Source of the DNA: Actinomycetota bacterium
Lineage (GTDB): Bacteria > Actinomycetota > Acidimicrobiia > Acidimicrobiales > MedAcidi-G1
Reading direction: 5' to 3'
Length of the DNA: 34,463 nt
Assembly: GCA_014381945.1 (NCBI GenBank)
Contig: JACNKQ010000062.1
Span: 1-34,463 of the forward strand
Under the pieces are notes generated by a model that saw nothing but the letters and a program-made list of their open reading frames with translations, was not told the origin of the DNA and searched no databases. The translations under genes were made by a program, and so were the position numbers. Positions 19,934-33,114 of this stretch are shown in pieces. The first letter of the stretch is position 1, and each line of letters begins with the position of its first letter.

Positions 19934-20006
19934 TACCGTGCCCGCCGTGCAGCCGTTGACCCGCAGGAGCCTTCCACCGACCACGTGCCGGGGGGCGCTT
20001 CGATGA
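19934..20006 (+). promoter_or_regulatory. ftsE promoter plus leaderless 19-codon mini-ORF ending in ATGA
   Basis: TACCGT (19934-19939) is followed after 7 nt by GTG 19947. That GTG opens 19 codons (peptide [19 protein letters not shown]), with TGA at 20004-20006. The stop overlaps the ftsE ATG (20003) as ATGA. The arrangement suggests a leaderless leader peptide coupled to ftsE. It recurs at three other genes here. The mini-ORF is out of frame with FtsE, so it is not an N-terminal extension. Confidence 0.5.
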
Positions 20007-20680
20007 TCCGCCTCGAAGGTGTCTCGAAGGTCTATAAGGGCGATGTCACCGCGCTGCGCGAGGTTTCGGTCGAGATCCAACGCGGCGAGTTCGTCTTCCT
20101 CGTGGGCCCATCCGGGTCCGGCAAGTCCACATTCCTGCGCCTCCTCAACCGGGAGGAGGTGGCCGACGCCGGACAGCTGATGGTGGCCGGCAAGGACATA
20201 GGTGCCCTGCGTTCATGGAAGGTGCCGTACCTGCGCCGCGAGATCGGATACGTCTTCCAGGACTACAAGCTGCTTTCGAGGAAGACCGTCTACGAAAACG
20301 TCGCCTTCGGGCTCGAGGTGATCGGCCGCCCCCGGAGCGTGGTCCGCAAGCAGGTGCCGTTCATCCTCGAACTGGTCGGGTTGACGCCCAAGGCCGAACG
20401 CTTCCCCGGCGAACTCTCGGGTGGTGAACAGCAGCGGGTGTCCATCGCCAGGGCGTTCGTGAACCGGCCCCTGATCCTGTTGGCGGACGAGCCCACCGGC
20501 AACCTCGACCCCGCCACCTCGGTCGGCATCATGCGCCTCCTCGACCGGATCAACCGCTCGGGCACCACGGTCGTCATGGCGACCCACGACCGGGGCATCG
20601 TCGACACGATGCGGCGACGGGTGATCGAGTTGGACCGCGGCGTCGTGGTCCGCGACGAGTCGCGGGGGGTCTACGAGTGA
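20003..20680 (+). CDS. ftsE: Cell division ATP-binding protein FtsE
   Basis: FtsE is the cytoplasmic ATPase that, with FtsX, controls peptidoglycan hydrolases at the septum. The 225-residue product has Walker [10 protein letters not shown] (35-43), the signature LSGGEQQR (from 138), and Walker [14 protein letters not shown] with [11 protein letters not shown]. It starts [20 protein letters not shown], typical of FtsE. A GTG at 19985 could add six residues but would ignore the ATGA junction with the upstream mini-ORF. ftsX begins 30 nt downstream. Confidence 0.96.
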
Positions 20681-20710
20681 GCCGCCCGCCCGGCCGTCGG
20701 AGGCGCTGAC

Positions 20711-21604
20711 ATGTACCGGCTCTGGTACTACCTGCGCGAAACCGTCCTCAGCATCTGGCGCAACCTCAGCCTCACGATGGCCGCCATCCTCACGGTCGCC
20801 GTGTCGCTCGCCCTGGTGGGCGCATCGATGATGATCCGCGAGGGGGCCGAGCGGGCCACAGCCCAGTTCCAGGAGGGCGTCGAGTTCATCGTGTTCATGA
20901 ACCCCGACGCCAACGCAGACCAGAACGCCGCCATCCGCCACGTCCTCGACTCCAGCCCATCGATCGAGGGCTACAACTACATCGACAAGGCGGCGGCCTA
21001 CGACGAGTTCGAAACCCTGTTCGCCGACAAGCCGGAGTTGGTGGAAAGCGTCACCCCCGACGTCATGCCGCCCTCCTACCGGATCGTGCCGACCGACCGC
21101 TCGGCTGCCAACGTGAACGAGTTGGCAAACCAGTTCGCAGCACAACCGGGCGTCCGCGAGGTCGCCACGGCAACAGAGGCCATCCGCCAGATCGACGACT
21201 TCTCGACACGCGTCAGCCAGGCGCTCCTCATAGCGGCGGTGGTACTGGTGGGCGTCTCGGCACTGCTGATCCTCAACACGGTCTTCACCGCCATCGGAGC
21301 CCGCAAGCAGGAGATCGAGGTGATGAAGCTGGTGGGGGCATCGAACTGGTTCATCCGCATCCCCTTCATGCTCGAGGGCACGATCCACGGCCTCATCGGA
21401 GCGGCGATGGCCATTCCGGTCCTGTTCGTGGTCGACAACGAGGTCATGGCCTTCTTCCAGGAGTCCGACTCCGTGCCGCTGTTCCGGGGATTCGCAGTTC
21501 CCGAGGGCTTCGTCTGGGACACCAGCATCTGGTTGCTGATCCTGGGAGGGGCGGTCGGCATGGTCGGCTCGGCAGTCGCCGTCACCCGCTACCTCGACGT
21601 CTGA
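20711..21604 (+). CDS. ftsX: Cell division protein FtsX
   Basis: FtsX is the membrane partner of FtsE. The 297-residue product has one TM helix near residues 20-42 (TMAAILTVAVSLALVGASMM), then an extracytoplasmic loop of about 130 residues that in actinobacteria contacts a cell-wall hydrolase such as RipC. Three further TM helices follow (ALLIAAVVLVGVSALLILN, HGLIGAAMAIPVLFVV, LLILGGAVGMVGSAVAV). A good ribosome-binding site, GGAGG, lies 8 nt before the ATG. smpB, which often follows in actinobacteria, is replaced by a Rieske-protein gene. Confidence 0.96.
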   Translation: MYRLWYYLRETVLSIWRNLSLTMAAILTVAVSLALVGASMMIREGAERATAQFQEGVEFIVFMNPDANADQNAAIRHVLDSSPSIEGYNYIDKAAAYDEFETLFADKPELVESVTPDVMPPSYRIVPTDRSAANVNELANQFAAQPGVREVATATEAIRQIDDFSTRVSQALLIAAVVLVGVSALLILNTVFTAIGARKQEIEVMKLVGASNWFIRIPFMLEGTIHGLIGAAMAIPVLFVVDNEVMAFFQESDSVPLFRGFAVPEGFVWDTSIWLLILGGAVGMVGSAVAVTRYLDV

Positions 21605-21608
21605 GCCC

Positions 21609-21962
21609 GTGGCGGCCGGCATGGACGGTGACCACGGCTGGGTTCGGGTCGCCGGCGCATCCCTCTCCGCCGGAACCACCACGGAGGCAACCCTCGACGA
21701 TCATGACCTCGTCGTCTGGCGGACAACCGACGGCCGACCGTGCGTGATGGAGGCCCGCTGCCCCCACCAGTGGTCCCACCTGGCCGGCGAAGGCGCCGTC
21801 GAAGGAGACGAGCTGGTCTGCCTGACGCATTTCTGGCGATTCACCACCGAGGGAGAGGGTTGGAAGGAGAACATCGGCGGCCGGAGGGACCGCAAGGGCG
21901 ACATCCGGACCTGGCCCTGCCGGGAGGACGCCGACGGGATCTGGGTTCGCCGCGGCGACTAG
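21609..21962 (+). CDS. Small Rieske [2Fe-2S] domain protein
   Basis: The 117-residue product is a stand-alone Rieske domain. Ligands are C51-P-H53 (CPHQWSHL) and C71-L-T-H74 (CLTHFWRF), spaced as in ferredoxin-type Rieske proteins, giving two Cys and two His. Such proteins pass electrons to oxygenases or act as small electron carriers; no oxygenase is encoded next to it. No signal peptide or TM helix is visible, so it should be cytoplasmic. GTG 21609 lies 4 nt after the ftsX stop; ATG 21621 is an alternative. It may be co-transcribed with ftsX. Confidence 0.82.
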   Translation: MAAGMDGDHGWVRVAGASLSAGTTTEATLDDHDLVVWRTTDGRPCVMEARCPHQWSHLAGEGAVEGDELVCLTHFWRFTTEGEGWKENIGGRRDRKGDIRTWPCREDADGIWVRRGD

Positions 21963-21998
21963 GTTCGGGGACCGGTAACAGCGGCAGGGGAGCGATCC

Positions 21999-23072
21999 AT
22001 GGGCGATGACAGGCAGCAGGCACTCGACCCGGACCTGCTCGGGCGCTACACCCTCACCACCTGGGGATACAAGCAGGGCGAGACGGTGTCGTTGATGATC
22101 CACCTGGGCACCCGACTCGGCCTCTACGAGGCCCTCGACGGCGCCGGAAAGGTGACATCGGGCGACCTGGCTGCGATCACGGGCCTGCACGAGCGGTGGC
22201 TCCGTGAATGGCTGCGCGGTCAGGCAGCGGCACAACTCCTCGCCTCGGATGACGGCGAGACGTTCCTGCTCGAACCGGAGGCCGCAGCCGTGCTCGCCCG
22301 GAGCAGCGACCCCACCTTCGCCGCCGGGGTGTTCCGGAACCTGCGCGACCCGGCGATGGCCGACCGTCTTGCCGAGGCCTTCCACTCAGGACTCGGACCG
22401 ACCTACGACGACCAGGGGGAGGGTTCCGAGATGCACGTCGAGGCGATGCTGGCGCCGATGGCCCGCACGCTGCTGGTGCCCGTCGTGATGCCCATCCTGG
22501 ACGGGGTCGTCGACCGCCTGTCCGCCGGAGCGAAGGTCGTCGACGTGGGGTGCGGAGCGGGGCTGGCCCTGCAGCTCCTGGCCGACGCCTTTCCCGACTC
22601 CGAGTTCGAGGGCTACGACATCTCCGAGCGTGCGATCGCAGTCGCACGGGAACGGTTCGCCGACCGTGCCAACGTGACCGTGCACCTGGCCGGCGGTGAG
22701 GACCTACCGGCAACCGGCGACGCCGACCTCGTCATGACCCTCGATTGCCTCCACGACATGCCCCGCCCCGACCTGGCGATGGCGGCCATCCGAGGGGCCA
22801 TCGCCCCCGACGGGACCTGGCTCGTCAAGGAGATCCGCTCGTCGCACGAATGGCACAAGAACCTGCGCAACCCGATGCTGGCCATGATGTACGCGACCTC
22901 GGTTGCAAGCTGCATGGCATCGGCGATGTCGACCCCCGACGGCCTGGGCCTCGGCACCCTGGGGCTCGATCCGGGCACCCTGGCGGACATGACCGCCAGT
23001 GCAGGATTCACGAGGTTCGTCCAGCACGAGGTCGACGACCCGACCAACCTCTACTACGAGGTACGCCCCTGA
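21999..23072 (+). CDS. SAM-dependent methyltransferase with N-terminal winged helix (Rv2258c-like)
   Basis: The 357-residue protein has an N-terminal winged-helix-like dimerisation part (MIHLGTRLGLYEAL, SGDLAAITGLHERWLREWLR). A Rossmann methyltransferase domain follows, with motif I VVDVGCGAGLAL and acidic loop FEGYDISERAIAVA, then LVMTLDCLHDMPRP and GTWLVKEI. The architecture resembles mycobacterial Rv2258c and small-molecule O-methyltransferases; the substrate is unknown. The ATG has CAGGGGAG upstream. TAGGTT at 21960-21965 is a possible -10 box with a short leader. Its stop codon abuts that of the convergent binding-protein gene with no bases between (TGATCA). Confidence 0.8.
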   Translation: MGDDRQQALDPDLLGRYTLTTWGYKQGETVSLMIHLGTRLGLYEALDGAGKVTSGDLAAITGLHERWLREWLRGQAAAQLLASDDGETFLLEPEAAAVLARSSDPTFAAGVFRNLRDPAMADRLAEAFHSGLGPTYDDQGEGSEMHVEAMLAPMARTLLVPVVMPILDGVVDRLSAGAKVVDVGCGAGLALQLLADAFPDSEFEGYDISERAIAVARERFADRANVTVHLAGGEDLPATGDADLVMTLDCLHDMPRPDLAMAAIRGAIAPDGTWLVKEIRSSHEWHKNLRNPMLAMMYATSVASCMASAMSTPDGLGLGTLGLDPGTLADMTASAGFTRFVQHEVDDPTNLYYEVRP

Positions 23073-24821
23073 TCAGCGGAACGCCTGCCATCCGCCGGCA
23101 GGCACGATGCACCCGCCAGGGTCGTCGGTGGCATCTGTGCCACTTCCGAGGCGGCACGGATACTGGAACCCGAGGTTCCGGACGACATCGGGCAGGTCGT
23201 TTTTCCTACGGGCCGACGAGGTCGGGAGCATGCCCGGGATGTCGACCCCGTCGAGCTGGTATAGCACCCAGTTCACGTCAGACTGCCGGGGGTTGACGCC
23301 GGCGTCCCGGAGCGCTCTTGCGGCGATCCGCACCAGGGAGCAGGCGTCGGCCACCGGGGCGTAGGTGGCATCTGATGGATCTGCAACAGGGTGCCCGGTC
23401 ACCCGGCCGTACTCGGCGTTGCACATCTGCGAGAACGGGTCGGGGAAGCCCTCACGGTCGGAGTCCGGGAGCCGCCATGTGCCGGTACCGGAAGCGTCGA
23501 CGATGAGCGCGCCGTCGTAGTAGGCGGCCACCTCGGGGCCACCGAAGGCGAGGACCTGTCCGGCAGCCAGGTCGCCGGACTGCCCGTTGAGGCCGGTCTG
23601 CACGAAGACCGGCGTCGGCATCCCCTGTCGGATCATCTCGGCCAGGAGCCCGGGAAGGGAGACGGCGTTGAGCACAGGGAACACGACGGTCGTGCCCTCG
23701 TCGATCATCCGCTCTACCGCCACGGCGAGCCCCAGCGAACAGGAGGTCGTTCCCTCACAGCCGACCAGGTGCACCCTTACTTCGTAGCCGAGGTCGTCCA
23801 TCGCCTCGAGGAGGCCGGCTGACACAGCCTCCGACTGGCCGGGTGTGTCCGAGACGACGACGGCGATGGTCTCCCCGTCGAGCAGCCCGCCCGCCTCGGC
23901 CGACCGGGCTGCCAACTCGAGTTGGGTGTCGCCGGCGACGGCGATGGTCAGCAGGCGGCCGCGTGCCGTGCGGAGGTCGTCGGAGGACTGGGGCTCGGTT
24001 GTGATCAGGGGCGTCCTCCCGGTGCCGGCAATGCACAGTGGCGCCGATCCCTGGAGACCGGTCATGTCCAGCACCAGGACTGCAGCGAGTTCGCCGGTCG
24101 CCTCGAGGCAGGCGGCGCTCCGAAGGGTGTCGATGTCCACGCCGCCGCCACCCAGCGCAGTGACCTCGACCGTGCGGAGGTCGAGTCGACGGCCGTACAC
24201 GCCACCGCACTCGTCGTTCAGGATGCCGACGAACGCCTCGACCATCTCGGCCGTGTCGCCCACGGGGAATTCGAATCCGATCCGCTCGTAATCCTCGAGG
24301 CGGGTGCGCAGGTGGACGATCCGGATGGCCTCCTCTGTGATCCCGTCGTCGGTGGCACGAAGGGTTGACCCGGGTGGATCGGAGGGAAGGCAGAACACCT
24401 CGAGGCGCTGCAGGGGATCGCCCCTGTCAAAGGCCGCCTGGAAGTCGGCGAACACGTCTCCGCGGGGATCGTCGAAGCTCATCGGCCACGCTCCCGGATC
24501 AGGCGTCGTGGCCGGGGGAAGCGTGGAGGAGGTGGGTGGATCCGTCGTGGTGGTCGTGGAGGTGGGTGCAGCCGTAGTGGAGGTGGTAGTGGAGGTGGTA
24601 GTGGAGGTGGGCGGATCCGTCGTGGAGGTGGTAGTGGAGGTGGGCGGATCCGTCGTGGTGGTCGTGGACGTCAGAAAGGCGCCCGAGGCCGGGCCGGAGT
24701 TCGTCGGCTTGTCACGAGCGCAGGCGGAAGGTGCGTACACGAGGAACAACACCGATGCCAGGAGACCCAGCATCGACGGACGAATTCGGATGCCGTGGGA
24801 GCGGCAGCACAAGGATGGCAC
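23073..24821 (-). CDS. Secreted periplasmic-binding-type protein with Thr/Pro-rich linker
   Basis: The 582-residue product has a Sec signal peptide (RIRPSMLGLLASVLFLVYAP, then SACA). A Thr/Ser/Pro linker of about 55 residues follows, built on repeats of DPPTSTTT. The main domain resembles type 1 periplasmic-binding proteins of branched-chain amino acid ABC importers (ITEEAIRIVHLRTRLEDYE, VYGRRLDLRTVEV, GRLLTIAVAGDTQLELAARS). About ten cysteines suggest disulphides. PSAC is a poor lipobox, so lipidation is doubtful. No permease or ATPase lies nearby, so the ligand and any transport role are unknown. GTG 24821 is chosen because TACCAT lies 8 nt upstream; ATG 24773 is the alternative. Confidence 0.75.
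   Translation of the reverse strand: MPSLCCRSHGIRIRPSMLGLLASVLFLVYAPSACARDKPTNSGPASGAFLTSTTTTTDPPTSTTTSTTDPPTSTTTSTTTSTTAAPTSTTTTTDPPTSSTLPPATTPDPGAWPMSFDDPRGDVFADFQAAFDRGDPLQRLEVFCLPSDPPGSTLRATDDGITEEAIRIVHLRTRLEDYERIGFEFPVGDTAEMVEAFVGILNDECGGVYGRRLDLRTVEVTALGGGGVDIDTLRSAACLEATGELAAVLVLDMTGLQGSAPLCIAGTGRTPLITTEPQSSDDLRTARGRLLTIAVAGDTQLELAARSAEAGGLLDGETIAVVVSDTPGQSEAVSAGLLEAMDDLGYEVRVHLVGCEGTTSCSLGLAVAVERMIDEGTTVVFPVLNAVSLPGLLAEMIRQGMPTPVFVQTGLNGQSGDLAAGQVLAFGGPEVAAYYDGALIVDASGTGTWRLPDSDREGFPDPFSQMCNAEYGRVTGHPVADPSDATYAPVADACSLVRIAARALRDAGVNPRQSDVNWVLYQLDGVDIPGMLPTSSARRKNDLPDVVRNLGFQYPCRLGSGTDATDDPGGCIVPAGGWQAFR
24515..24675 (-). repeat. Low-complexity repeats coding the Thr/Pro linker
   Basis: This stretch codes a run of Thr, Ser, Pro and Asp. 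It includes a perfect two-copy 33-bp tandem repeat (24591-24623 and 24624-24656) containing a ggatccg core, and related partial copies around it. The 33-bp unit keeps the reading frame, so copy-number change would lengthen or shorten the linker by 11 residues. Confidence 0.75.
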
Positions 24822-24829
24822 AGCGGGCG

Positions 24830-24835
24830 ATGGTA
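24830..24835 (-). promoter_or_regulatory. Leaderless promoter -10 box of the binding-protein gene
   Basis: The minus strand reads TACCAT, 8 nt before GTG 24821, which is in frame with the signal peptide. It is divergent from the TAGCCT box at 24900. Confidence 0.5.
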
Positions 24836-24899
24836 CAGACGACAGGTCGCCGGGAGGGCCCACACCCCGGGGTGCCCGCCTCAGGTGGCGTTCGATGCC

Positions 24900-24936
24900 T
24901 AGCCTCTCGCCCGTGAACGGATACCCGCACAGATGA
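24900..24936 (+). promoter_or_regulatory. Promoter plus leaderless 7-codon mini-ORF ending in ATGA
   Basis: TAGCCT (24900-24905) is followed after 7 nt by GTG 24913. That GTG opens the peptide MNGYPHR, with TGA at 24934-24936 overlapping the downstream ATG (24933) as ATGA. No Shine-Dalgarno sequence precedes the main start, so coupling to the mini-ORF would explain how the gene is translated. Confidence 0.5.
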
Positions 24937-26204
24937 GCGACGAAGAGGACATCCCGCCGGAGCCCGATGACACCCTCGACGCGACGGGCGACCTGGCCAG
25001 GCCTGAGCAGCGGCTGCCCGAGGCGGGAACAGAGGTTTCCGGCGAGATGCGAATCCGCCGCGGGTCATTCTTCCGGGCCCGCCGTGAGGGAACCTCGCCC
25101 GTAGCGGACCTCGAGGTGGAGGCAGGGCCGCTCTGGAGCGAAAGGGAGGCCGAACGCCAGATCCGCATGTTCCTGCTCCGCATCGCCGGCGAACGAACCC
25201 TCGTCCACCGCGACGACCCGGTCGACTTCGCACGCGAGAACGACCTCCTCCTCCTGTTCGGACCCGACGAGGAGGAGGCGTTCGCCAAGTTGGCACTCCG
25301 CTTCCCTGAACAGACGGTGGGTCAGTGGGCCACCCTGCTGGCCGGTGGTGATCGGACGGAGGCATTCGGGCCGCGCTCGCGTGCCGAGCGCCGCGACGAG
25401 GCATCCATCGAACAATCGATCAAGCTGGGGGTCCGCAAGCGGGCGCTCAGCGTGCTGGGGCTGGCCCTGGTTGCGGTCATCGGCTACCTGGTGATCGGCA
25501 GTGCGCTCGAAACGGCTCCCGTGGATCGATCGGATCGCGCCCTCCGCTTCGCCGAGACCAGCCAGAACCGCGACCTCGGAGACCCCGACGACCCCGATGC
25601 ACCGGTGACCGGAGGCCCACCCGTGGCCGAACCGCTCCTCGTGGCCGACCTCGACCGACTCGTCGCCGTGGCGGCCGGTGAGGGCACGGTCGACGATCGA
25701 ATCAGGTTGCGGGTCGACGACGCCGTCCTACCCGTGCCCGTCGGCGGCGTGGCCGCATCGGTATTCGAGCACAAGGGCGGACAGGTGGCGCTTGTCGGAC
25801 CAGGGGGATGGGTTGACGGGGCATGTGTCCGGGCATCGGTCGTGACAGAGGCGCTTCGGCCCCTCGACGTGGTCCTCTTCGAATCCTCCGACGGCGCCTG
25901 TCCGATCGGCCTGGCAGGTCGACCAGCCAGGGCCACGTGTCGGGGTACCGATGCACTGGTCATCGAGATCGACATTCCCCAGGGCGAGGTCGACCTCGTC
26001 GAAGGCGGCATCGGATGGGCGGAGGGGATACGACTCAGCCTGGAGTTCGCCGCACCCGGCTGGGAGGTGCTGTCCCTGCGGGGCACGATCACCGTGCCAT
26101 CGGGCGGCGAGGCCGTCGCAATACCCAGCTTCGGCGGAACGCCGGGCGACGAGATCACCGTAGACCTAGGCGAAGGCCGCACCGGAACCTGCAGGTTGGC
26201 CTGA
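24933..26204 (+). CDS. Unrecognised single-TM protein
   Basis: I do not recognise this 423-residue protein. Residues 1-168 are hydrophilic and acidic, predicted cytoplasmic, with SEREAERQIRMFLLRIAGER and LLLLFGPDEEEAFAKLALRF. One TM helix follows basic residues at about 171-190 (ALSVLGLALVAVIGYLVIGS). The outer half, about 230 residues, seems beta-rich and has four cysteines (GACVRA, GACPIG, ATCRGT, GTCRLA), possibly two disulphides. The topology suggests a membrane-anchored protein with cytoplasmic N-terminus and exported C-terminus. It shares a divergent promoter region with the binding-protein gene. No function is proposed. Confidence 0.75.
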   Translation: MSDEEDIPPEPDDTLDATGDLARPEQRLPEAGTEVSGEMRIRRGSFFRARREGTSPVADLEVEAGPLWSEREAERQIRMFLLRIAGERTLVHRDDPVDFARENDLLLLFGPDEEEAFAKLALRFPEQTVGQWATLLAGGDRTEAFGPRSRAERRDEASIEQSIKLGVRKRALSVLGLALVAVIGYLVIGSALETAPVDRSDRALRFAETSQNRDLGDPDDPDAPVTGGPPVAEPLLVADLDRLVAVAAGEGTVDDRIRLRVDDAVLPVPVGGVAASVFEHKGGQVALVGPGGWVDGACVRASVVTEALRPLDVVLFESSDGACPIGLAGRPARATCRGTDALVIEIDIPQGEVDLVEGGIGWAEGIRLSLEFAAPGWEVLSLRGTITVPSGGEAVAIPSFGGTPGDEITVDLGEGRTGTCRLA

Positions 26205-26256
26205 ACGGACCCGCAGTTCGAGACCTGCATCGCCCGGTCACTCCCGGCATGGCCGA

Positions 26257-26262
26257 TACCGT
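26257..26262 (+). promoter_or_regulatory. Leaderless promoter -10 box of the SRAP gene
   Basis: TACCGT lies 7 nt before ATG 26270, which encodes Met followed by the catalytic Cys2. Confidence 0.6.
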
Positions 26263-26269
26263 GGCGCCC

Positions 26270-27013
26270 ATGTGTGGCCGGGTCGTCACGAGCTCCACGC
26301 CCGAGGAACTCGCCGAGTACCTCGGGGCGGACGAGATCGTCGCGACCCTCGACGCCCCCGACCACAACGTGCCGCCCACCCGGCCCCTGCCCCTCGTCTG
26401 GGAGGAGACCGGCGGCCCGGGGTGCGCCAGGAAGCTCGGCACGGCCCGTTGGGGACTTGTGCCCTCCTGGGCCAGCGACCCTTCCGTCGGCAACCGGATG
26501 TTCAACGCCCGGGCTGAGACAGTGGCCGAAAAGCCGTCCTTCCGATCCGCATTCAAGCGGCGCCGCTGCCTGGTTCCGATCGACGGCTTCTACGAGTGGG
26601 GACCGGCGACTCCAGGGTCGGCCGGGAAGAAGCAACCCTGGTTCGTCCACCGTGCCGACCGCGATCCGCTGGTCCTCGCCGGCCTGTGGGAGAGTCGGAC
26701 CGTGGAGGGCAGTGGTGGACTACGCACCTGCACTGTGATCACGGTCGACGCCAACGAGGACCTGTCGGCCATCCACCACCGCATGCCCGCACTGCTTCCG
26801 CCTGACGGTTGGTCCACCTGGCTCGACCCCGACCTGGACGACCGGGACCTCCTCGAGGCACTCCTGTCCCCGGCTCCCGCCGGACTCCTGCACCGGCATC
26901 CGGTCGACCTACGCGTCGGCAACCCCCGCAACAAGGGCCCCGGCCTGATGGAGCCGGTCGAGGTCGACACGGCGCCCGGGGACACCCTGTTCGGGGCAGC
27001 CGTGACCCCATGA
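26270..27013 (+). CDS. SRAP-domain protein (YedK/HMCES family)
   Basis: SRAP proteins bind single-stranded DNA and form a thiazolidine cross-link with abasic sites, shielding them from cleavage. The 247-residue product starts MCGRVV, giving Cys2 as the new N-terminus after Met removal. Other conserved parts are RWGLVPSWA, NARAET, CLVPIDGFYEW and IHHRMPALL, which contain the active-site Asn, Glu and His. The leaderless -10 box supports this exact start, which matters because Cys must be residue 2. Its stop overlaps the DUF2079 gene as ATGA. Confidence 0.93.
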   Translation: MCGRVVTSSTPEELAEYLGADEIVATLDAPDHNVPPTRPLPLVWEETGGPGCARKLGTARWGLVPSWASDPSVGNRMFNARAETVAEKPSFRSAFKRRRCLVPIDGFYEWGPATPGSAGKKQPWFVHRADRDPLVLAGLWESRTVEGSGGLRTCTVITVDANEDLSAIHHRMPALLPPDGWSTWLDPDLDDRDLLEALLSPAPAGLLHRHPVDLRVGNPRNKGPGLMEPVEVDTAPGDTLFGAAVTP

Positions 27014-28548
27014 AGGGCGACCGACGACTTTCGGGCTGGACCGACGAATGGACGGGCGGGCATGTCACCGTCCGCGTGCACGCGGCCCGCCGTCGTTTCG
27101 ACATGAGCCTGCTCCGATTGCAGGCGCAACTCGAGACACCGGCAGTCGACCGGTCGCTGCCATGGGTAGTCGCCTTCGTGCTGTTCACCACACTGTCCCT
27201 TCTGGCCCTCGCCAGGAACCGCGACTTCGGCCTGGGCACCGGGATCGGCTTTCCACTCCAGGCCATACACCTGCTCGAAGGCGGCCGCCCGCCGGTGATC
27301 TCAGACCTGGGCCTCAACCTCTTCGCAATCCAGGCAGCGTTCCTGTTCGTCCCGATCGCATTCCTCGCACGCTTCGTGCCCACAGCCGAGATGCTCCTCG
27401 TCTTCCAGGCCCTTGCCCTGGCCATTCCGGTCGTACCCATCTGGCGCATCGCACGGGGGCCGGCCAACCTGCGGATCGGTGGCGCCGGTGCCCTGATGCT
27501 CGCCTATGCACTGCACCCATCGGTCCACAACCTGAACCTGGCCGGTTTCCACACCGAGGCGCTCGCCCTCCCGGCCCTGTTCGTGGCCTACCTGGTCGGA
27601 CGCCGGGGCCAGTGGATTCGGCTGGGCCTCCTGTCGCTGGTGATCGTGGCCGCACGTGCGGACCTGGGCCTCGCCCTGGGTGCCCTCGGCCTCGTTCTGG
27701 TGCTCGAGGACCGGCGAAGGCCCGGCTGGATTCTCGCTGCCTTCGGGACGGCCTGGTTCGTCGTGATGGCCTTCATGCTGCAGCCGATGTTCGGGAACGG
27801 CGCCTACCCGCACCTCGGGGCATTCGCCGCCTTCGGCGACACCGCTCCAGGCGTCCTCGCCGGCATGCTGGGCGACCCGGTCGGCGTGGTTTCGCACCTG
27901 ACCGACAGGGTGGCATTCGAAAAGCAGCTCCTGCTCCTCGCCCCGGTCCTGTTCCTGCCGTTGATACGCCCCCGGTACCTCCTTCCGATACTCCCACTGC
28001 TGGGCCTCTACCTGATCGCCGATGTTCCGGACTTCGGTCTCGGCAACCCGCAGCAGGACGTGGCCACCCTGCCCTTCGTGATGATCGCAGCGGCCTATGC
28101 GCTGCAACGCCTGGGACGGCGGGGGGTCAGCCGGGTGCTGGTCGACCGGCGGATCCTGAGCGTGCTGGTGCTGACGGCCCTTGTCTTCTTCGTCCGGGAT
28201 GCAGCGGCTTCGCCCTACGAGCAACCCTGGGACTGGGGACGTCGCGATGCGGTGGACACGGCCCGCCTCACCGCAACCGGCATGGTCGAACGGTGGGATC
28301 GGGTACTTGCGACGTCCGCTGTCTTCCCCCTGATTGCCGAGCGGACCACGGCCATGGTCCTCCAGGACGACACGCCGTTCCTGCCCGACCTCGAGTTGGT
28401 CGAGGACATCGACGTTGTGATCTTCGACGAGACAGCGGCCAGATGGCCCCGATCCAGCGTCCGTGGCTTCGGCGGCGTGCTCGTGATGCTCGACTTCGAG
28501 GAACGCTTCGCTGAAGAAGGCGTCCACCTCTGGGTGCTCGCCCCCTGA
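27010..28548 (+). CDS. DUF2079 multi-pass membrane protein
   Basis: The 512-residue product is polytopic, with about ten hydrophobic segments starting at WVVAFVLFTTLSLLALARN. DFGLGTGIGFPLQAIHLLEG and LAGFHTEALALPALFVAYLV are hallmarks of the DUF2079 family, distantly related to GT-C glycosyltransferases. The aspartate in RNRDFGLG and the histidine in FHTEA are the likely functional positions by analogy with the family; the activity is unknown. The C-terminal 100 residues are soluble. It starts within the SRAP stop (ATGA), so it is probably co-translated, although no functional link is obvious. Confidence 0.82.
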   Translation: MKGDRRLSGWTDEWTGGHVTVRVHAARRRFDMSLLRLQAQLETPAVDRSLPWVVAFVLFTTLSLLALARNRDFGLGTGIGFPLQAIHLLEGGRPPVISDLGLNLFAIQAAFLFVPIAFLARFVPTAEMLLVFQALALAIPVVPIWRIARGPANLRIGGAGALMLAYALHPSVHNLNLAGFHTEALALPALFVAYLVGRRGQWIRLGLLSLVIVAARADLGLALGALGLVLVLEDRRRPGWILAAFGTAWFVVMAFMLQPMFGNGAYPHLGAFAAFGDTAPGVLAGMLGDPVGVVSHLTDRVAFEKQLLLLAPVLFLPLIRPRYLLPILPLLGLYLIADVPDFGLGNPQQDVATLPFVMIAAAYALQRLGRRGVSRVLVDRRILSVLVLTALVFFVRDAAASPYEQPWDWGRRDAVDTARLTATGMVERWDRVLATSAVFPLIAERTTAMVLQDDTPFLPDLELVEDIDVVIFDETAARWPRSSVRGFGGVLVMLDFEERFAEEGVHLWVLAP

Positions 28549-28562
28549 CGGGGAGCGCGAGC
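28536..28562. terminator. Bidirectional hairpin between DUF2079 and HIT genes
   Basis: GCTCGC-CCCC, loop tgac, GGGG-agc-GCGAGC forms a 10-bp GC-rich stem with a 3-nt bulge. It spans the DUF2079 stop codon and ends 2 nt before the HIT stop. It reads as a hairpin on both strands and is well placed to end two convergent transcripts. No U-tract follows. Confidence 0.5.
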
Positions 28563-28563
28563 C

Positions 28564-28983
28564 TCAGACGACGTCAGGATGTCGGGCCACCCGGAGAGCG
28601 GTGCGGAGCATCTCGGCCACAAGGTCGAGGCCTGCCGGGTCCGGGTCTGCTTCGGCCAGCCCGAAGTCGAGGTGACCCATGTGTTCGATCGGCACAACGT
28701 GCAGGTGGGTGTGCGGCACCTCGAATCCGGCGATCATGAGGCCGACCCGGGTAGGGGAGAAGGCCTCCTGGATCGCAACGCCGACGGCGTGGGCCACCGT
28801 CATGCAGTGGGCGGCAACGTCTGACGACAGGTCCGTCCAGCGGTCGACCTCGGCGATCGGGACCACCAGAGTGTGGCCCCGGTTGAGGGGACGGATGTCA
28901 ACCATCGCCACGCACACGTCGTCGCGCCAGATGATCCGGCCGGGGATCTCTCCGGCGATGATGCGGCTGAAGATCGAGGGCAT
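28564..28983 (-). CDS. HIT family nucleotide hydrolase/transferase
   Basis: The 139-residue product starts MPSIFSRIIAGEIPGRIIWR and contains the histidine triad PHTHLHVVP, as in HinT-type nucleoside phosphoramidases and dinucleoside polyphosphate hydrolases. NRGHTLVVPIAEVDRW is the other conserved block. It should be cytoplasmic and act on AMP-linked substrates; the exact one is unknown. CCCGGAGG lies 5 nt before the ATG, an unusually clear ribosome-binding site for this window. The predicted TACGAT promoter gives a leader of about 55 nt containing three 9-bp repeats. Confidence 0.92.
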   Translation of the reverse strand: MPSIFSRIIAGEIPGRIIWRDDVCVAMVDIRPLNRGHTLVVPIAEVDRWTDLSSDVAAHCMTVAHAVGVAIQEAFSPTRVGLMIAGFEVPHTHLHVVPIEHMGHLDFGLAEADPDPAGLDLVAEMLRTALRVARHPDVV

Positions 28984-29008
28984 GGTGGCCTCCGGGCGTT
29001 TGGTGAAG

Positions 29009-29035
29009 GGGGTGAACGGGGTGAACGGGGTGAAC
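29009..29035. repeat. Three tandem copies of ggggtgaac between HIT and pgsA
   Basis: Three perfect 9-bp units (29009-29017, 29018-29026, 29027-29035) are followed by a partial gggtg. They lie in the HIT leader and also cover the -35 region of the divergent pgsA promoter. Confidence 0.8.
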
Positions 29036-29043
29036 GGGTGTTC

Positions 29044-29049
29044 ATCGTA
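29044..29049 (-). promoter_or_regulatory. Putative -10 box of the HIT gene, overlapping the pgsA -10 box
   Basis: The minus strand reads TACGAT. Its TA is the same base pair step as the TA of the plus-strand TAGGCT (29048-29053), so two divergent promoters share two base pairs. Confidence 0.45.
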
Positions 29050-29053
29050 GGCT
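29048..29053 (+). promoter_or_regulatory. Leaderless promoter -10 box of pgsA
   Basis: TAGGCT lies 7 nt before GTG 29061. No ribosome-binding site is visible. Confidence 0.55.
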
Positions 29054-29060
29054 CCTACCC

Positions 29061-29678
29061 GTGAACAGCGAGGAGCGGCGGGAACCCACCCTCCGCACGG
29101 GATGGCAGGGTGTGTGGACAGTTCCCAACGCCATCAGCGTTGCAAGGATCGCCTGCATCCCCTGGTTCGTCTGGCTGCTGTTCGGGGCCGGGGACCGGAC
29201 GGCGGCAGCGCTGCTGCTCGGAGCACTCGGAGCCACCGACTGGGTCGACGGCTGGGTTGCCCGCCGGTTCGACCAGATCTCCGAGATCGGCAAGGTCCTC
29301 GACCCGACAGCCGACCGGCTCCTGCTCATTGTTGCGGCACCGGCGATGATCATCGACGGTTCGGTCCCGACCTTGTTCGCCGCTGCGGCGCTCCTGCGGG
29401 AGGTCCTGATCGGCGCTGCGGCGCTCCTCCTCGCCGGCTTCGGCGCACGCCGGATCGACGTGACCTGGTGGGGCAAGACGGGGACCTTCGCCATGCTGTT
29501 CGCCTTTCCGTGCTTCCTGGCGGGGGAGTCCACGATCACCGGCCGACCGGCCTTTGCCGTGGCGGCCTGGGTCTTCGCCATCCCCGGGCTCCTGATCGCA
29601 TGGTGGGCCGGTCTCGGGTATGTCCCCGAGGGATTCCGGGCGCTCCGGGAGGGCCGAGCCGCCCGGGAAGGTGCCTGA
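29061..29678 (+). CDS. pgsA: CDP-alcohol phosphatidyltransferase (PgsA-like)
   Basis: The enzyme joins a CDP-diacylglycerol phosphatidyl group to an alcohol, most likely glycerol 3-phosphate, in the membrane. The full motif D60xxD63G64xxA67R68-x8-G77-xxx-D81-xxx-D85 is present (TDWVDGWVARRF, then GKVLDPTAD). TVPNAISVARI is the typical N-terminal block before the first TM helix; about five or six hydrophobic segments follow. The 205-residue length fits PgsA. The position near gcvH and garA recalls mycobacterial pgsA2. Substrate choice (glycerol phosphate or another alcohol) cannot be settled from sequence alone. Confidence 0.88.
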   Translation: MNSEERREPTLRTGWQGVWTVPNAISVARIACIPWFVWLLFGAGDRTAAALLLGALGATDWVDGWVARRFDQISEIGKVLDPTADRLLLIVAAPAMIIDGSVPTLFAAAALLREVLIGAAALLLAGFGARRIDVTWWGKTGTFAMLFAFPCFLAGESTITGRPAFAVAAWVFAIPGLLIAWWAGLGYVPEGFRALREGRAAREGA

Positions 29679-29715
29679 ACCTCGCCCCAGAGCCCACTGG
29701 TGCCGATGCATTGTG

Positions 29716-29721
29716 TAGGTT
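29716..29721 (+). promoter_or_regulatory. Leaderless promoter -10 box of gcvH
   Basis: TAGGTT lies 7 nt before ATG 29729. A leaderless gcvH leaves no room for a glycine riboswitch. Confidence 0.6.
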
Positions 29722-29728
29722 CGGGCGC

Positions 29729-30112
29729 ATGAATGTTCCAGGCGACCTCCGCTATTCGGCCGATCACGAGTGGGTCCGCGTCGAAGAAGGTGGACGGGTC
29801 CGGATCGGCATCACCGACTACGCACAGGACGCGCTCGGGGACGTCGTGTTCATCGACCTTCCGTCCCTCGGCACGACGGTGCTGACCGGCGCGGTGTTCG
29901 GCGAGGTCGAGTCGACCAAGTCGGTCTCCGAACTGTTCGCACCCCTCTCCGGCTCGGTCGTGGCAGTCAACGACGAACTCGAAGCGGCCCCCGAACGGGT
30001 CAACGAGGATCCCTACGGCGACGGATGGATCTGCGAACTCCAACTCGCGGACGCCGCAGAACTCGACGACCTCATGGACCCGGCCGCCTACTCGACGCTG
30101 ATCGAGGGTTGA
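29729..30112 (+). CDS. gcvH: Glycine cleavage system H protein
   Basis: GcvH shuttles the methylamine group between GcvP, GcvT and the lipoamide dehydrogenase on a lipoyl arm. The 127-residue product has the lipoylation site FGEVESTKSVSELF with K64, the same position as in E. coli, and the family blocks YSADHEWVRVEEGG, GITDYAQDALGDVVFIDLP and VNEDPYGDGWI. The start agrees with the -10 box. The garA homologue begins 2 nt after its stop. gcvT lies 3.4 kb downstream on the same strand; gcvP is not in the window. Confidence 0.97.
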   Translation: MNVPGDLRYSADHEWVRVEEGGRVRIGITDYAQDALGDVVFIDLPSLGTTVLTGAVFGEVESTKSVSELFAPLSGSVVAVNDELEAAPERVNEDPYGDGWICELQLADAAELDDLMDPAAYSTLIEG

Positions 30113-30114
30113 CC

Positions 30115-30579
30115 GTGGACGAGAAAAGGTGCCCGGCGTGCGGGCGGACAGACGACGGTGCGGCCAACTTCTGCCCCTCGTGCGGTCATGAGATCCGCTC
30201 CTCCGCCGACGAGATCACCGACACCTTCGAACTCGAAAAGGAACTACCCCACGAAGAGGACCGGGCCCGCTTTCCCCACGACTGCGGCCTGTTCGTGGTC
30301 GAATCGGGTCCCAAGGCAGGTGCCCGCTATGGCCTCGAGGCCGACCTCACGACCCTGGGTCGCCACGGGGACGCCGACATCTTCTTCGACGATGTCACCG
30401 TCTCGCGGCGCCACGCCGAGGTACAGCGCACCGGCGACCGCTACCTGGTCCGGGATGCCGGCTCCCTCAACGGCACCTACGTGAACCGGGATCGGATCGA
30501 GAGCGTCCTCCTTCAGGACGGCGACGAACTCCAGATCGGACGATTCCGGCTGGTGTTCTTCCACGGCACCGCAGGCTGA
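30115..30579 (+). CDS. garA: GarA/OdhI-type FHA protein with N-terminal zinc ribbon
   Basis: GarA/OdhI inhibits 2-oxoglutarate dehydrogenase and adjusts glutamate metabolism; phosphorylation of an N-terminal Thr by Ser/Thr kinases makes the FHA domain bind its own tail and switches it off. The 154-residue product has FHA residues G82-R83, S97/R98/H100 and N119-G120 (TLGRHGDADIFFDDVTVSRR, GSLNGTYVNRD) and the end DGDELQIGRFRLVFF. DEITDTFELEKEL, with T35 and T37, sits where GarA has its ETTS phosphosite. Unlike mycobacterial GarA, residues 6-23 form a zinc ribbon (CPAC, CPSC). GTG 30115 is 2 nt after gcvH. Confidence 0.87.
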   Translation: MDEKRCPACGRTDDGAANFCPSCGHEIRSSADEITDTFELEKELPHEEDRARFPHDCGLFVVESGPKAGARYGLEADLTTLGRHGDADIFFDDVTVSRRHAEVQRTGDRYLVRDAGSLNGTYVNRDRIESVLLQDGDELQIGRFRLVFFHGTAG

Positions 30580-30589
30580 CCGGCGGGCC

Positions 30590-31303
30590 ATGACGGCGAC
30601 CACCACCCTCACGATCGGCGAGGTGATCGACCGGCTCGTCGAGGAGTTCCCCGATGTCACGGTCTCGAAGATCCGGTTCCTGGAATCCCAGGGCCTCGTG
30701 GATCCCGGACGCACCCCGTCCGGCTACAGGCAGTTCACGTCGACCGACGTCGGCCTCCTTCGCTGGGTGCTCCGCCAGCAACGCGAGCACTTCCTTCCCC
30801 TCAAGGTCATCCGGGAGGCCCTCGAGGAAACCGGTGGACGGGTCCCGGACCCGAACGGGGACGGCGACGACGCCGAGGTTTCGCCCTTCCGGGAGCGGGG
30901 CCGGCAGCGTCGCTTCGTGGGATCGGTGAGCGTGTCGCGTGAGGAGTTGGCAACCACGGTCGGGGTGGAGCCCCCGATCATCGCCCAACTCGAGCGACTG
31001 GGCCTGCTGGTCGGTCATGTGGCGGGTTCGGCGACCGTCTACGACGGCGAGGCCCTGCACGTGGCCCGCCTCGCAGCCCGATTCCTCGAACTCGGGGTCG
31101 ACCCCCGCCACCTGAGGATGTTCCTCGTCGGGGCGCAGCGGGAAGCGGGTGTGCTCGAGCAGGCCCTCCTGCCCCGGCTACGGAGCGACGACCGCTCACA
31201 ACGCGAGGTGAGGGCCCAGCTCGACGAGTTGGTGGACGCCGGGAGCCAACTGCGCGAGATCCTGCTCCGTCGCTCACTGGGCCGACTGGGCGACCAGGCG
31301 TAG
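30590..31303 (+). CDS. ftsR: MerR-family regulator FtsR (Rv1828-like)
   Basis: The 237-residue product has an N-terminal MerR winged helix (LTIGEVIDRLVEEFPDVTVS, KIRFLESQGLVDPGRTPSGY, RQFTSTDVGLLRWVLRQQRE) and a long C-terminal part with a second helix-rich region (VSREELATTVGVEPPIIAQL). The order gcvH-garA-this gene-bfn matches Rv1826-Rv1829 (with one inserted gene), so it is the likely orthologue of Rv1828, called FtsR in Corynebacterium, where it activates ftsZ. No metal-sensing cysteines are seen. The ATG is 10 nt after the garA stop. Confidence 0.85.
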   Translation: MTATTTLTIGEVIDRLVEEFPDVTVSKIRFLESQGLVDPGRTPSGYRQFTSTDVGLLRWVLRQQREHFLPLKVIREALEETGGRVPDPNGDGDDAEVSPFRERGRQRRFVGSVSVSREELATTVGVEPPIIAQLERLGLLVGHVAGSATVYDGEALHVARLAARFLELGVDPRHLRMFLVGAQREAGVLEQALLPRLRSDDRSQREVRAQLDELVDAGSQLREILLRRSLGRLGDQA

Positions 31304-31311
31304 TCGGCCAC

Positions 31312-31932
31312 ATGGGTGCACCTCGGCTACTACTAGGTTCCGACGACCTGGCCCGGCGCGTGAAGGAACTAGGCGCAGAGGTCGCCGAAGGCCTCGACGA
31401 CGGTGCCGTCGTCGTCGGGGTCCTACGGGGCTGCCTGCCGTTCCTGGCCGACCTTGTGCGCGCCGTGGACCGACGTCTCGAGATCGACTTCCTGTCGCTC
31501 AGCGCATTCGCTCCGGACAGCGGACGGGTCCGACTCACCCGCGACGTCGGTTTGGACGTGAGCGGCCGCCAGGTGCTCCTCGTGGAGGACATGGTCGACA
31601 CCGGACTCCGGCTCGACTTCCTGCTCCGCCACCTCCGGAACCACGAAGCGTCCGAGGTTCGAGTGTGCACCCTGTTCGACCGCGTCGACCGGCGTGTGCT
31701 CCCGGTGCCCGTCGACTACGTGGGCTTTGTCCTGGAGGAACCGTTCGTGGTCGGATACGGACTCGACCATCGGGGACTGTTCCGCAACCTGCCGGGCATC
31801 GTCACCCTCGACCAGGCACAGCTCGAGGCGGACCTCGATTCCTGTTCCGAGCCTGGTGGAGATGCCATGGTCGACGACATCCGAACCTTGGCCAGAGCCG
31901 GTTCCGGCGACGAGAGTAGGGTGCCCGCGTGA
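31312..31932 (+). CDS. Hypoxanthine phosphoribosyltransferase-like protein
   Basis: The 206-residue product has the type I phosphoribosyltransferase PRPP loop VLLVEDMVDTGLRLDFLL, the block VVGVLRGCLPFLADLVRAVD and the Hpt-type PVDYVGFVLEEPFVVGYGLD, then RNLPGI. Hpt salvages hypoxanthine and guanine to IMP and GMP. This copy diverges: RGCLPF stands where KGxxxF is usual, and about 40 extra residues follow RNLPGI. It may be a specialised paralogue. It is inserted between ftsR and bfn, where mycobacteria have none. Its stop overlaps the GTG of the mini-ORF before bfn (GTGA). Confidence 0.78.
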   Translation: MGAPRLLLGSDDLARRVKELGAEVAEGLDDGAVVVGVLRGCLPFLADLVRAVDRRLEIDFLSLSAFAPDSGRVRLTRDVGLDVSGRQVLLVEDMVDTGLRLDFLLRHLRNHEASEVRVCTLFDRVDRRVLPVPVDYVGFVLEEPFVVGYGLDHRGLFRNLPGIVTLDQAQLEADLDSCSEPGGDAMVDDIRTLARAGSGDESRVPA

Positions 31933-31964
31933 TCCGCCAGGAGTTGCCCGGGGGCCGTCGATGA
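31917..31964 (+). promoter_or_regulatory. bfn promoter plus leaderless 11-codon mini-ORF between hpt-like and bfn
   Basis: TAGGGT (31917-31922), inside the last codons of the hpt-like gene, is followed after 6 nt by GTG 31929. The mini-ORF encodes MIRQELPGGRR and ends with TGA at 31962-31964, overlapping the bfn ATG (31961) as ATGA. Its GTG also overlaps the hpt-like stop as GTGA, so it could join the two genes by coupling as well as serve a leaderless transcript. Confidence 0.5.
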
Positions 31965-32452
31965 TCGAAATGCAGATCGTCGGCGTGCAGGAGGTCCTGC
32001 CGACGAACACGCCCGTCGTCCTGCTCCGGGAAACAGAGGGGCGGCGGCTGCTGCCCATCTTCATCGGGCACCCGGAGGCGACAGCGATAGCCCTGGCGCT
32101 GGCAGGCCAGGAGACCCCACGCCCGATGACCCACGACCTGATGGCCGGGGTACTCGACGGCTTCTCCATCAGGCTCGAGCAGGTCGTCGTGAGCGAACTG
32201 CGGGACCGCACCTTCTTCGCCGAACTGCATCTTCGGGGACCGGATGGCCCACAGGTGGTTTCCGCCAGGCCCTCCGATGCGATCGCCCTCGCCGTCCGTA
32301 CAGCCACATCCGTATTCGCTGCCGAAGAGGTCCTCGACGAGGCCGGCTACCTGCCTCCGGAAGAGGAGAGGCCCACTGGCACCGAGGAGCAACTCGAGGA
32401 ATTCCGCGAGTTCCTCGACCAGGTCAACCCCGAGGACTTCGCCGGGGAATAG
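31961..32452 (+). CDS. Bifunctional nuclease family protein (DUF151)
   Basis: The 163-residue product starts MIEMQIVGVQEVLPTNTPVV and keeps the family blocks RRLLPIFIGHPEATAIALAL, RPMTHDLMAGVLD and SARPSDAIALAVRT. The family name comes from plant BBD proteins with RNase and DNase activity; crystal structures of bacterial members exist, but the bacterial role is unsettled. The orthologous gene in mycobacteria is Rv1829. The acidic C-terminal tail (EEQLEEFREFLDQVNPEDF) is typical of actinobacterial copies. The ATG is preferred because it begins the conserved domain. Confidence 0.9.
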   Translation: MIEMQIVGVQEVLPTNTPVVLLRETEGRRLLPIFIGHPEATAIALALAGQETPRPMTHDLMAGVLDGFSIRLEQVVVSELRDRTFFAELHLRGPDGPQVVSARPSDAIALAVRTATSVFAAEEVLDEAGYLPPEEERPTGTEEQLEEFREFLDQVNPEDFAGE

Positions 32453-32491
32453 ACCCGAATCGGGATCGTTGGCTGACTCCCCAACAGGTGA

Positions 32492-32520
32492 TTGACGCCG
32501 CGCGCTCCCGCCCCTACCCT
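32492..32520 (+). promoter_or_regulatory. Consensus-like promoter upstream of the second merR gene
   Basis: TTGACG (32492-32497), a 17-bp spacer and TACCCT (32515-32520) form the best -35/-10 pair in the window. The predicted start is near 32527, about 100 nt before the merR start. It lies in the 176-bp gap after bfn, the largest intergenic region on this side. Confidence 0.65.
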
Positions 32521-32535
32521 GTGGAGGTCACAGGG
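32517..32535. promoter_or_regulatory. Inverted repeat CCCTGTG-N5-CACAGGG over the transcription start
   Basis: A perfect 7-bp dyad with a 5-bp centre (gaggt) overlaps the last four bases of the upstream -10 box and covers the predicted transcription start. It ends 3 nt before the second -10 box (TAGTTT at 32539). It is a plausible repressor operator, perhaps autoregulatory for the MerR protein. Confidence 0.5.
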
Positions 32536-32538
32536 GTG

Positions 32539-32626
32539 TAGTTTCGCCGTTGTGGTTCGCATTGCACCGACACCCGGGTCGCCGAGAAGGCCCTACAAGG
32601 TGGCAGGCGGTGCAGAGAGGGGTTGA
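32539..32626 (+). promoter_or_regulatory. Second merR promoter with leaderless 24-codon mini-ORF ending in TTGA
   Basis: TAGTTT (32539-32544) is followed after 7 nt by GTG 32552. This opens a 24-codon frame rich in Arg, Pro and Gly (first residues MVRIAPTPGSPRRPY) that ends with TGA at 32624-32626. The stop overlaps a TTG (32623) in the merR frame as TTGA and lies 2 nt before the merR GTG (32629). Confidence 0.45.
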
Positions 32627-32628
32627 CC

Positions 32629-33114
32629 GTGGATACACCGACAGAGGGTTACAGCGCTAAGCAGAGTGCCGATATCGTCGGCATCACCTACCGCCAACTC
32701 GACTACTGGGCCCGGACCGAGTTGGTGCGGCCATCGCTGGTTGACGCCGAGGGCAGCGGCTCACGCCGCCTGTACTCCTACCGCGACCTGCTCGAACTGA
32801 AGGCCATCAAGACCCTCCTCGACGCCGGCATCCGCCTGGAACGCGTGCGGAAGGTCTTCGAGTTCCTGCACGACACGCTCGACGAGGACGTGTCCCGGGT
32901 AAACCTGGTCATCAGCGGCGACTCCGTCCTGGTCCGACGAGGCGAACACGAGATCATCGACCTGCTGCGCAGGGGACAGGGAGTCCTCAACATCCTGCCC
33001 CTGGCCGGCGTGAAGCACGACCTCGATGCCACGATCATCGACTTGTTTCCGGCCACCCGATCCGCCGCTGGTACCTCCGGCGTAGGCGACGATGCCTCGG
33101 CGGTGGGCAAGTAG
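32629..33114 (+). CDS. MerR-family regulator (Rv1830-like)
   Basis: The roughly 161-residue product has a MerR helix-turn-helix: YSAKQSADIVGITYRQLDYW, then ARTELVRPSL and GSRRLYSYRDLLELKAIKTL. A short effector region follows, with no cysteines that would suggest metal sensing. NLVISGDSVLVRRGEHEIID and GVLNILPLAGVKHDLDATII are characteristic of the actinobacterial family next to bfn (mycobacterial Rv1830). GTG 32629 has GAGAGGGG upstream; TTG 32623 is an in-frame alternative that overlaps the mini-ORF stop. The ligand and regulon are unknown. Confidence 0.85.
   Translation: MDTPTEGYSAKQSADIVGITYRQLDYWARTELVRPSLVDAEGSGSRRLYSYRDLLELKAIKTLLDAGIRLERVRKVFEFLHDTLDEDVSRVNLVISGDSVLVRRGEHEIIDLLRRGQGVLNILPLAGVKHDLDATIIDLFPATRSAAGTSGVGDDASAVGK

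What the first reader, a model, noticed from the sequence alone, without database searches (positions are those of the whole stretch)
24900..24936. Seven-codon leaderless mini-ORF before an unknown membrane protein
TAGCCT, 7 nt, GTG, the peptide MNGYPHR, then TGA overlapping the main ATG. The main start has no ribosome-binding site, so coupling to this tiny frame is the simplest route to translation. A 7-codon frame is too short to be a protein; the act of translating it would be the function.
Basis: partly seen in the sequence, partly recalled or inferred. Interest (0 to 1): 0.65.

Follow-up and report, generated by a model that had tools for sequence, protein, structure and literature searches.

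The report
Leaderless mini-ORF feeding downstream gene
A seven-codon reading frame at the very start of a predicted messenger RNA, kept in place across three bacterial genera although its letters change freely, most likely exists only to carry ribosomes to the start of the real gene; the same trick is known from mycobacteria but, as far as I found, had not been shown in this marine lineage.

Summary
It is not chance. The main gene (no Pfam/NCBIfam match) occurs in 44 of 48 genomes of its family of marine Acidimicrobiia. In three genera (12/12 genomes) the -10 box, the GTG and an exactly 7-codon frame ending in ATGA are kept, while the 17 nt between change freely (57 parsimony changes; none in GTG or ATGA). 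In two other genera the start codon 7-8 nt after the same type of -10 box is in frame with the gene (direct leaderless start); in another (g3) the leader carries an SD, and both GTG and leader length have drifted. Five other genes show conserved mini-ORFs of 8-22 codons with the same junction. Best explanation: the 5'-terminal GTG loads ribosomes, which terminate at UGA and reinitiate at the overlapping AUG. This class was described in mycobacteria (Shell 2015, PMC4633059).

The parts
24900..24905 (+). -10 element TAGCCT (TANNNT type) of the inferred promoter
   Evidence: TAGCCT in 12/12 g1/g5/g6 orthologues, TAGCGT/TAGCCT/TAACCT in g4 and part of g2, TAGCCT in most g3; genome-wide TANNNT spacing peak at 6-8 nt
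24906..24912 (+). 7-nt spacer between -10 and start codon; inferred transcript start at 24913
   Evidence: 7 nt in 10/12, 6 nt in 2/12; same spacing as direct leaderless orthologues
24913..24936 (+). 7-codon leaderless mini-ORF GTG AAC GGA TAC CCG CAC AGA TGA (MNGYPHR)
   Evidence: conserved in length, frame and ends, not in sequence, in 12/12 genomes of three genera
24933..24936 (+). ATGA stop-start overlap between mini-ORF and main gene
   Evidence: 12/12 in g1/g5/g6, 0 parsimony changes
24933..26204 (+). Main gene: 423-aa protein of unknown family, helical N-terminal region, long helix ~153-192 that holds the likely membrane span, beta-rich C-terminal half
   Evidence: orthologues in 44/48 family genomes
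24819..24835 (-). Inferred leaderless start of the divergent gene: TACCAT, 8 nt, GTG at 24821
   Evidence: Same signature in 5/5 g1 genomes
31917..31964 (+). Second example: TAGGGT, 6 nt, 11-codon mini-ORF (VIRQELPGGRR) ending in ATGA at a bifunctional-nuclease (PF02577) gene
   Evidence: coupled by RTGA in 5/5 g1, two g4 and two g6 genomes with 11-22 codons; in two further g6 genomes the stop lies 1-4 nt further upstream
19934..20006 (+). Third example: TACCGT, 7 nt, 19-codon mini-ORF ending in ATGA at an ABC-ATPase (FtsE-like) gene
   Evidence: same in G003; other relatives not retrieved across the junction

Best explanation
The mRNA starts at, or within a base or two of, the GTG at 24913 (inferred). 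Ribosomes load on this 5'-terminal GUG as on other leaderless actinobacterial mRNAs (inferred from the spacing signature and mycobacterial experiments), translate seven codons, stop at UGA, and, because UGA overlaps AUG as AUGA, reinitiate one base back on the main gene, which has no SD of its own. The peptide is a by-product; what selection keeps is the 5' start codon, the reading frame and the overlap. At this locus the mini-ORF state alternates across genera with a direct leaderless start from the same type of promoter and with an SD-type leader, so it is one of several interchangeable ways to bring a ribosome to the same gene.
For: Architecture in 12/12 genomes of three genera: 0 changes in GTG and ATGA against 57 changes in the 17 nt between (mean 3.35 per column, none unchanged), Poisson P about 4e-5 for GTG alone. 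The GTG-to-ATG distance is always 20 nt, whereas the -10-to-ATG distance in g3 (SD present) ranges over 23-27 nt within one genus. On a SecA+LeuS+LepA tree the three mini-ORF genera are spread over the family, so the state is either old and kept or repeatedly regained. Orthologues without a mini-ORF show the alternatives: 15/15 g4 and 5/8 g2 start directly in frame 7-8 nt after the -10. No SD in the window, no strong 5' structure. Same junction at other genes: nuclease-domain, epimerase, TyrA-like, FtsE-like and WhiB-like; counting this locus, 46 of 49 out-of-frame leaderless starts end exactly in RTGA (40 of 43 without the window-genome seeds), the other three a little further upstream. Precedents: a 5' ATG/GTG is sufficient for leaderless initiation and RTGA-coupled leaderless small ORFs are enriched in mycobacteria (PMC4633059); M. 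tuberculosis PPE2 lacks an SD and needs its AUGA-overlapping uORF, mainly by termination-reinitiation (PMC11260477).
Against: No RNA or ribosome data exist here; the genomes are MAGs. Genus g6 leaders hold GGGG stretches with moderate anti-SD pairing (-5 to -8.6 kcal/mol), so direct 30S loading may add to coupling there. Genome-wide enrichment of candidates by spacing alone is modest (9 in three bins against about 1.3 per bin elsewhere), and one candidate (C13:12321) was not conserved. Two g3 genomes have an out-of-frame GTG that runs on into the main gene, though with an SD present.
Confidence: 0.78

Rival explanations
1. The main ATG is initiated independently on a short leader; the mini-ORF is incidental.
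For: g3 orthologues do this with an AGAGGG SD, and g6 leaders have GGGG stretches; a 20-nt leader is long enough for a 30S subunit.
Against: No SD in the window; GTG, frame and length are frozen where no good SD exists and drift in g3; other genes show the same junction with different leader lengths that keep the frame.
Confidence: 0.1
2. The 5'-terminal GTG acts by binding ribosomes (standby or mRNA protection) and need not be translated, as for E. coli ptrB.
For: In ptrB a start-stop mutant kept 40% expression while loss of the 5'-AUG dropped it below 8% (PMC4965119).
Against: Does not predict the fixed frame and the ATGA junction, nor that lengths at other loci change while the junction stays.
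Confidence: 0.06
3. The mini-ORF is a sensing leader peptide (stalling or attenuation).
For: Short leader peptides do this elsewhere, such as the proposed cysteine-rich leaderless uORFs of mycobacteria (PMC4633059); the last codon is Arg in 10/12.
Against: Peptide sequences are not conserved between genera and only partly within g1; the last codon must end in A because of the overlap, which favours AGA/CGA; no strong structure.
Confidence: 0.03
4. The GTG is an internal codon of a longer upstream ORF (24304-24936) overlapping the main gene.
For: The frame is open for 207 codons upstream in the window.
Against: Eight of twelve relatives have an in-frame stop 3-33 codons upstream; the open stretch is antisense to the conserved divergent gene in a 69% GC genome, where long open antisense frames are common.
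Confidence: 0.01
5. Ribosomes frameshift or read through at the junction and make a fusion instead of reinitiating.
For: A minor frameshifted fusion was seen at the PPE2 AUGA overlap (PMC11260477).
Against: Minor there; no conserved sequence before the ATGA here.
Confidence: 0.02

Closest known systems
'Coupled' leaderless small ORFs of mycobacteria (Shell et al. 2015, PMC4633059)
   Same: RTG at the 5' end, short out-of-frame ORF, RTGA overlap with the annotated gene; architecture kept while peptide sequence is not; small ORFs of 5-50 aa (23 of 220 coupled in M. tuberculosis)
   Different: Here in marine Acidimicrobiia, inferred from sequence only; conserved over several genera with a fixed 7-codon length at this locus, and with orthologues that switch to a direct leaderless start or an SD leader
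uPPE2-PPE2 of M. tuberculosis (PMC11260477)
   Same: SD-less gene with AUGA overlap to an out-of-frame uORF; translation depends on the uORF
   Different: uPPE2 has its own SD and sits under a B12 riboswitch; no leaderless entry
E. coli 5'-uAUG mRNAs, e.g. ptrB (PMC4965119)
   Same: 5'-terminal start codon and short uORF before the gene
   Different: Main gene has an SD; for ptrB, ribosome binding counts more than uORF translation
Termination-reinitiation at ATGA gene overlaps (Huber et al. 2019, PMC6728339)
   Same: Stop-start overlap as coupling device
   Different: There the upstream partner is a full gene

Membership tests
Coupled leaderless small ORFs (Shell 2015) | Transcript 5' end coincides with an ATG/GTG | tested here: inconclusive
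   -10 spacing of 6-7 nt conserved in 12/12 and matches the genome-wide leaderless peak; transcript start not mapped
Coupled leaderless small ORFs (Shell 2015) | Small ORF of 5-50 aa, out of frame with the main gene | tested here: met
   7 codons, out of frame, 12/12
Coupled leaderless small ORFs (Shell 2015) | Stop and start overlap as RTGA | tested here: met
   ATGA in 12/12
Coupled leaderless small ORFs (Shell 2015) | Architecture conserved more than peptide sequence (seen in some mycobacterial examples) | tested here: met
   0 changes in GTG/ATGA against 57 in 17 leader columns
Coupled leaderless small ORFs (Shell 2015) | Small ORF is translated (ribosome profiling) | not testable with these tools
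   No expression data at hand for these genomes
Leader-peptide attenuator | Conserved or amino-acid-biased peptide | tested here: not met
   Peptides differ between genera
SD-led gene with short 5' UTR | SD at proper distance before the main ATG | tested here: not met
   -3.3 kcal/mol, at random level, in the window; met in g3, partly in g6

The most novel reading that the evidence does not exclude
In this family the leaderless mini-ORF is a general adapter: about 1% of genes pass a 5'-GUG-loaded ribosome onto an SD-less start through an RTGA junction, and the lineage moves between direct leaderless start, N-terminal extension and coupled mini-ORF as small indels change the frame, with the 7-codon length at this locus itself under selection.
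Probability: 0.35. Interest if true: 0.68.

Novelty: new member of a known kind. Interest (0 to 1): 0.52.

Why it matters
It extends a translation-initiation mode described in mycobacteria to a distant actinobacterial class and supplies a natural experiment: orthologues under one type of promoter that start directly, through a mini-ORF, or through an SD. It offers a set of loci with which to ask whether reinitiation after a leaderless start is efficient and whether mini-ORF length matters. Gene callers ignore 7-codon frames, so such genes look as if they had no initiation signal.

Tried and rejected
Longer upstream ORF 24304-24936 as coupling partner: rejected by in-frame stops in relatives. 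Hidden SD: at random level in the window. Occluding RNA structure: energies near or weaker than shuffles for most. Enrichment by spacing over the sampled 28% of the genome: only about 2-fold, so conservation was used instead. Candidate C13:12321 (13 codons) was not conserved: relatives have no -10/RTG at that place. Sensing peptide: no conserved sequence. Structure prediction and PDB fold search gave no function for the main protein (mean pLDDT 73.8; no match at E<0.001). An IQ-TREE run timed out; FastTree was used, and there the grouping of g6 with g1/g2/g4 against g3/g5 has only 0.675 support.

Full report
Observation. The window reads TAGCCT (24900-24905), CTCGCCC, GTG AAC GGA TAC CCG CAC AGA TGA (24913-24936), the TGA overlapping the main ATG at 24933 as ATGA. 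The genome is 69% GC; relatives are marine Acidimicrobiia MAGs such as DCXR01000060 and PACE01000008. The strict pattern is unique in the window and absent from shuffles, but it was written after the fact, so I relied on comparison.

Leaderless starts are common in this genome. In 697 kb of it (28%), an ad hoc gene finder gave 603 usable genes. TANNNT lies 6, 7 or 8 nt before an in-frame ATG/GTG near the gene start 35, 60 and 23 times, against 0-9 at other spacings from 3 to 12. TANNNT at this distance is the known sign of leaderless actinobacterial genes (general knowledge; PMC3160421 and PMC3898074 deal with such genes, found and not read in full). The 7-nt spacing in the finding fits it.

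Conservation. The main protein has relatives in 44 of 48 genomes of its GTDB family. Junctions were read in these genomes. In genera g1 (5), g6 (6) and g5 (1) all twelve have TAGCCT, 6-7 nt, GTG, six more codons, and TGA overlapping ATGA. Peptides: MNGYPHR, MNGHPHR, MNGWRRR, MDRPERR, MERTGWR (g1); MRSRGGR, MRTRGTT, MRTRGSR (twice), MKTLGAR, MRRRGAR (g6); MLWAYRQ (g5). In g4 (15/15) and two g2 genomes the start codon (GTG, once ATG) 7 nt after TAGCGT/TAGCCT/TAACCT is in frame: the gene itself is leaderless. Three more g2 genomes have a leaderless ATG 8 nt after TAGTAT/TAGCAT/TAACAT; in that g2 branch the methyltransferase gene, not the divergent gene, lies directly upstream. In g3 (9) the -10 box is followed by a leader with AGAGGG or AAGG, the -10-to-ATG distance drifts between 23 and 27 nt, and only two have a GTG at the leaderless position, out of frame and not coupled.

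Selection. On a tree of the twelve, the 17 nt between GTG and ATG need 57 changes (mean 3.35 per column, none unchanged); GTG needs none and ATGA none. With a Poisson rate of 3.35 per column, three unchanged GTG columns have P of about 4e-5; parsimony undercounts, so this is conservative on rate, though it assumes the leader columns are a fair yardstick. g3 argues against a promoter reason for GTG: the -10 stays and GTG goes. Absence of stops in six codons says little (P 0.89 by chance). A SecA+LeuS+LepA tree gives ((g5,g3),(g6,(g4,(g2,g1)))) (one deep grouping weakly supported): the mini-ORF state is scattered, hence either ancestral and lost about three times, or regained with the same length.

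The same device elsewhere. Scanning the sampled genome for TANNNT-N6-8-RTG frames of up to 30 codons ending at a gene start gave nine candidates, about twice the background of other spacings. Seven loci including this one were compared with relatives. Nuclease-domain gene (window 31961, PF02577): 11, 11, 11, 11, 16 codons in g1; 11 and 20 in g4; 20-22 in g6; direct start in G008 and G009; SD (GGAGG) in g3. Epimerase gene: 10 codons in g1 (5/5), 20 in g6 (2/2), 13 and 9 in g4, 10 in g2. TyrA-like gene: 19 codons in g1 (5/5) and g6 (2/2), 8 in g2; in g4 G008 and G021 the same leaderless ATG is in frame and becomes an N-terminal extension. FtsE-like (window 20003): 19 codons in two g1 genomes (read by eye). 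WhiB-like gene: 20 codons in g1 (5/5), with an SD too, not beyond the genus. C13:12321: not conserved. In total 46 of 49 out-of-frame leaderless starts end in RTGA, the other three end slightly further upstream (stop offsets -2, -5 and -11 against +1); without the window genome's own seeds 40 of 43. The two g3 cases with an SD are not in this count. The names WhiB, TyrA and FtsE rest on sequence appearance and general knowledge; only the nuclease, epimerase and ABC-ATPase domains were confirmed by Pfam.

Mechanism. Shown: position, conservation, lack of SD, lack of strong structure. Inferred: transcript start at the GTG, ribosome loading there, termination and reinitiation at AUGA. Support comes from mycobacteria, where a 5' ATG/GTG is necessary and sufficient for leaderless initiation and coupled RTGA small ORFs are enriched (PMC4633059), and where the SD-less PPE2 needs its AUGA-overlapping uORF mainly by termination-reinitiation (PMC11260477). 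A general account of such coupling is PMC6728339. The binding-only model of ptrB (PMC4965119) does not explain the fixed frame.

Main protein. 423 aa, no family; AlphaFold2 with 32 family sequences gives a low-confidence first 50 residues, a helical region, a long helix (153-192) and a beta-rich C-terminal half; no PDB match at E<0.001. It lies between a divergent gene with a Thr-rich low-complexity stretch, which has its own leaderless signature in g1, and an SRAP gene; this order holds in g1, g6 and g4 wherever the contig reaches far enough.

Verdict. What is added is the new lineage, the depth of conservation at a 7-codon frame, and orthologues that exchange three ways of starting the same gene.

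Noticed in passing
window 24819-24835, minus strand: The divergent gene has its own leaderless signature (TACCAT, 8 nt, GTG at 24821) in 5/5 g1 genomes, so its start is probably 24821 and not the longest-ORF start 24863; the two leaderless promoters stand back to back.
   Followed up: partly
window 31917-32452: Bifunctional-nuclease-domain gene behind a conserved 11-codon leaderless mini-ORF; mini-ORF length varies 11-22 codons across genera with the stop-start junction nearly always kept.
   Followed up: yes
L053:18324-19457: TyrA-like gene with 19-codon coupled leaderless mini-ORF in g1 and g6, 8 codons in g2; in two g4 genomes the same leaderless ATG is in frame and becomes an N-terminal extension.
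   Followed up: yes
window 19934-33114: Four of the nine candidate coupled leaderless mini-ORFs found in 697 kb lie in this 34-kb window (one of them doubtful, 24 codons before 32623); no explanation sought.
   Followed up: no
L047 about 690-774: In the outgroup genome G081 the orthologue has no in-frame ATG/GTG/TTG upstream of the match; TACCCT, 6 nt, ATC GAC GAG in frame suggests a possible non-standard leaderless start codon or a sequence error.
   Followed up: no
window 24505-24680: The divergent gene has a low-complexity Thr-rich stretch near its N-terminus (weak match to Pfam Mucin, below its cut-off).
   Followed up: no
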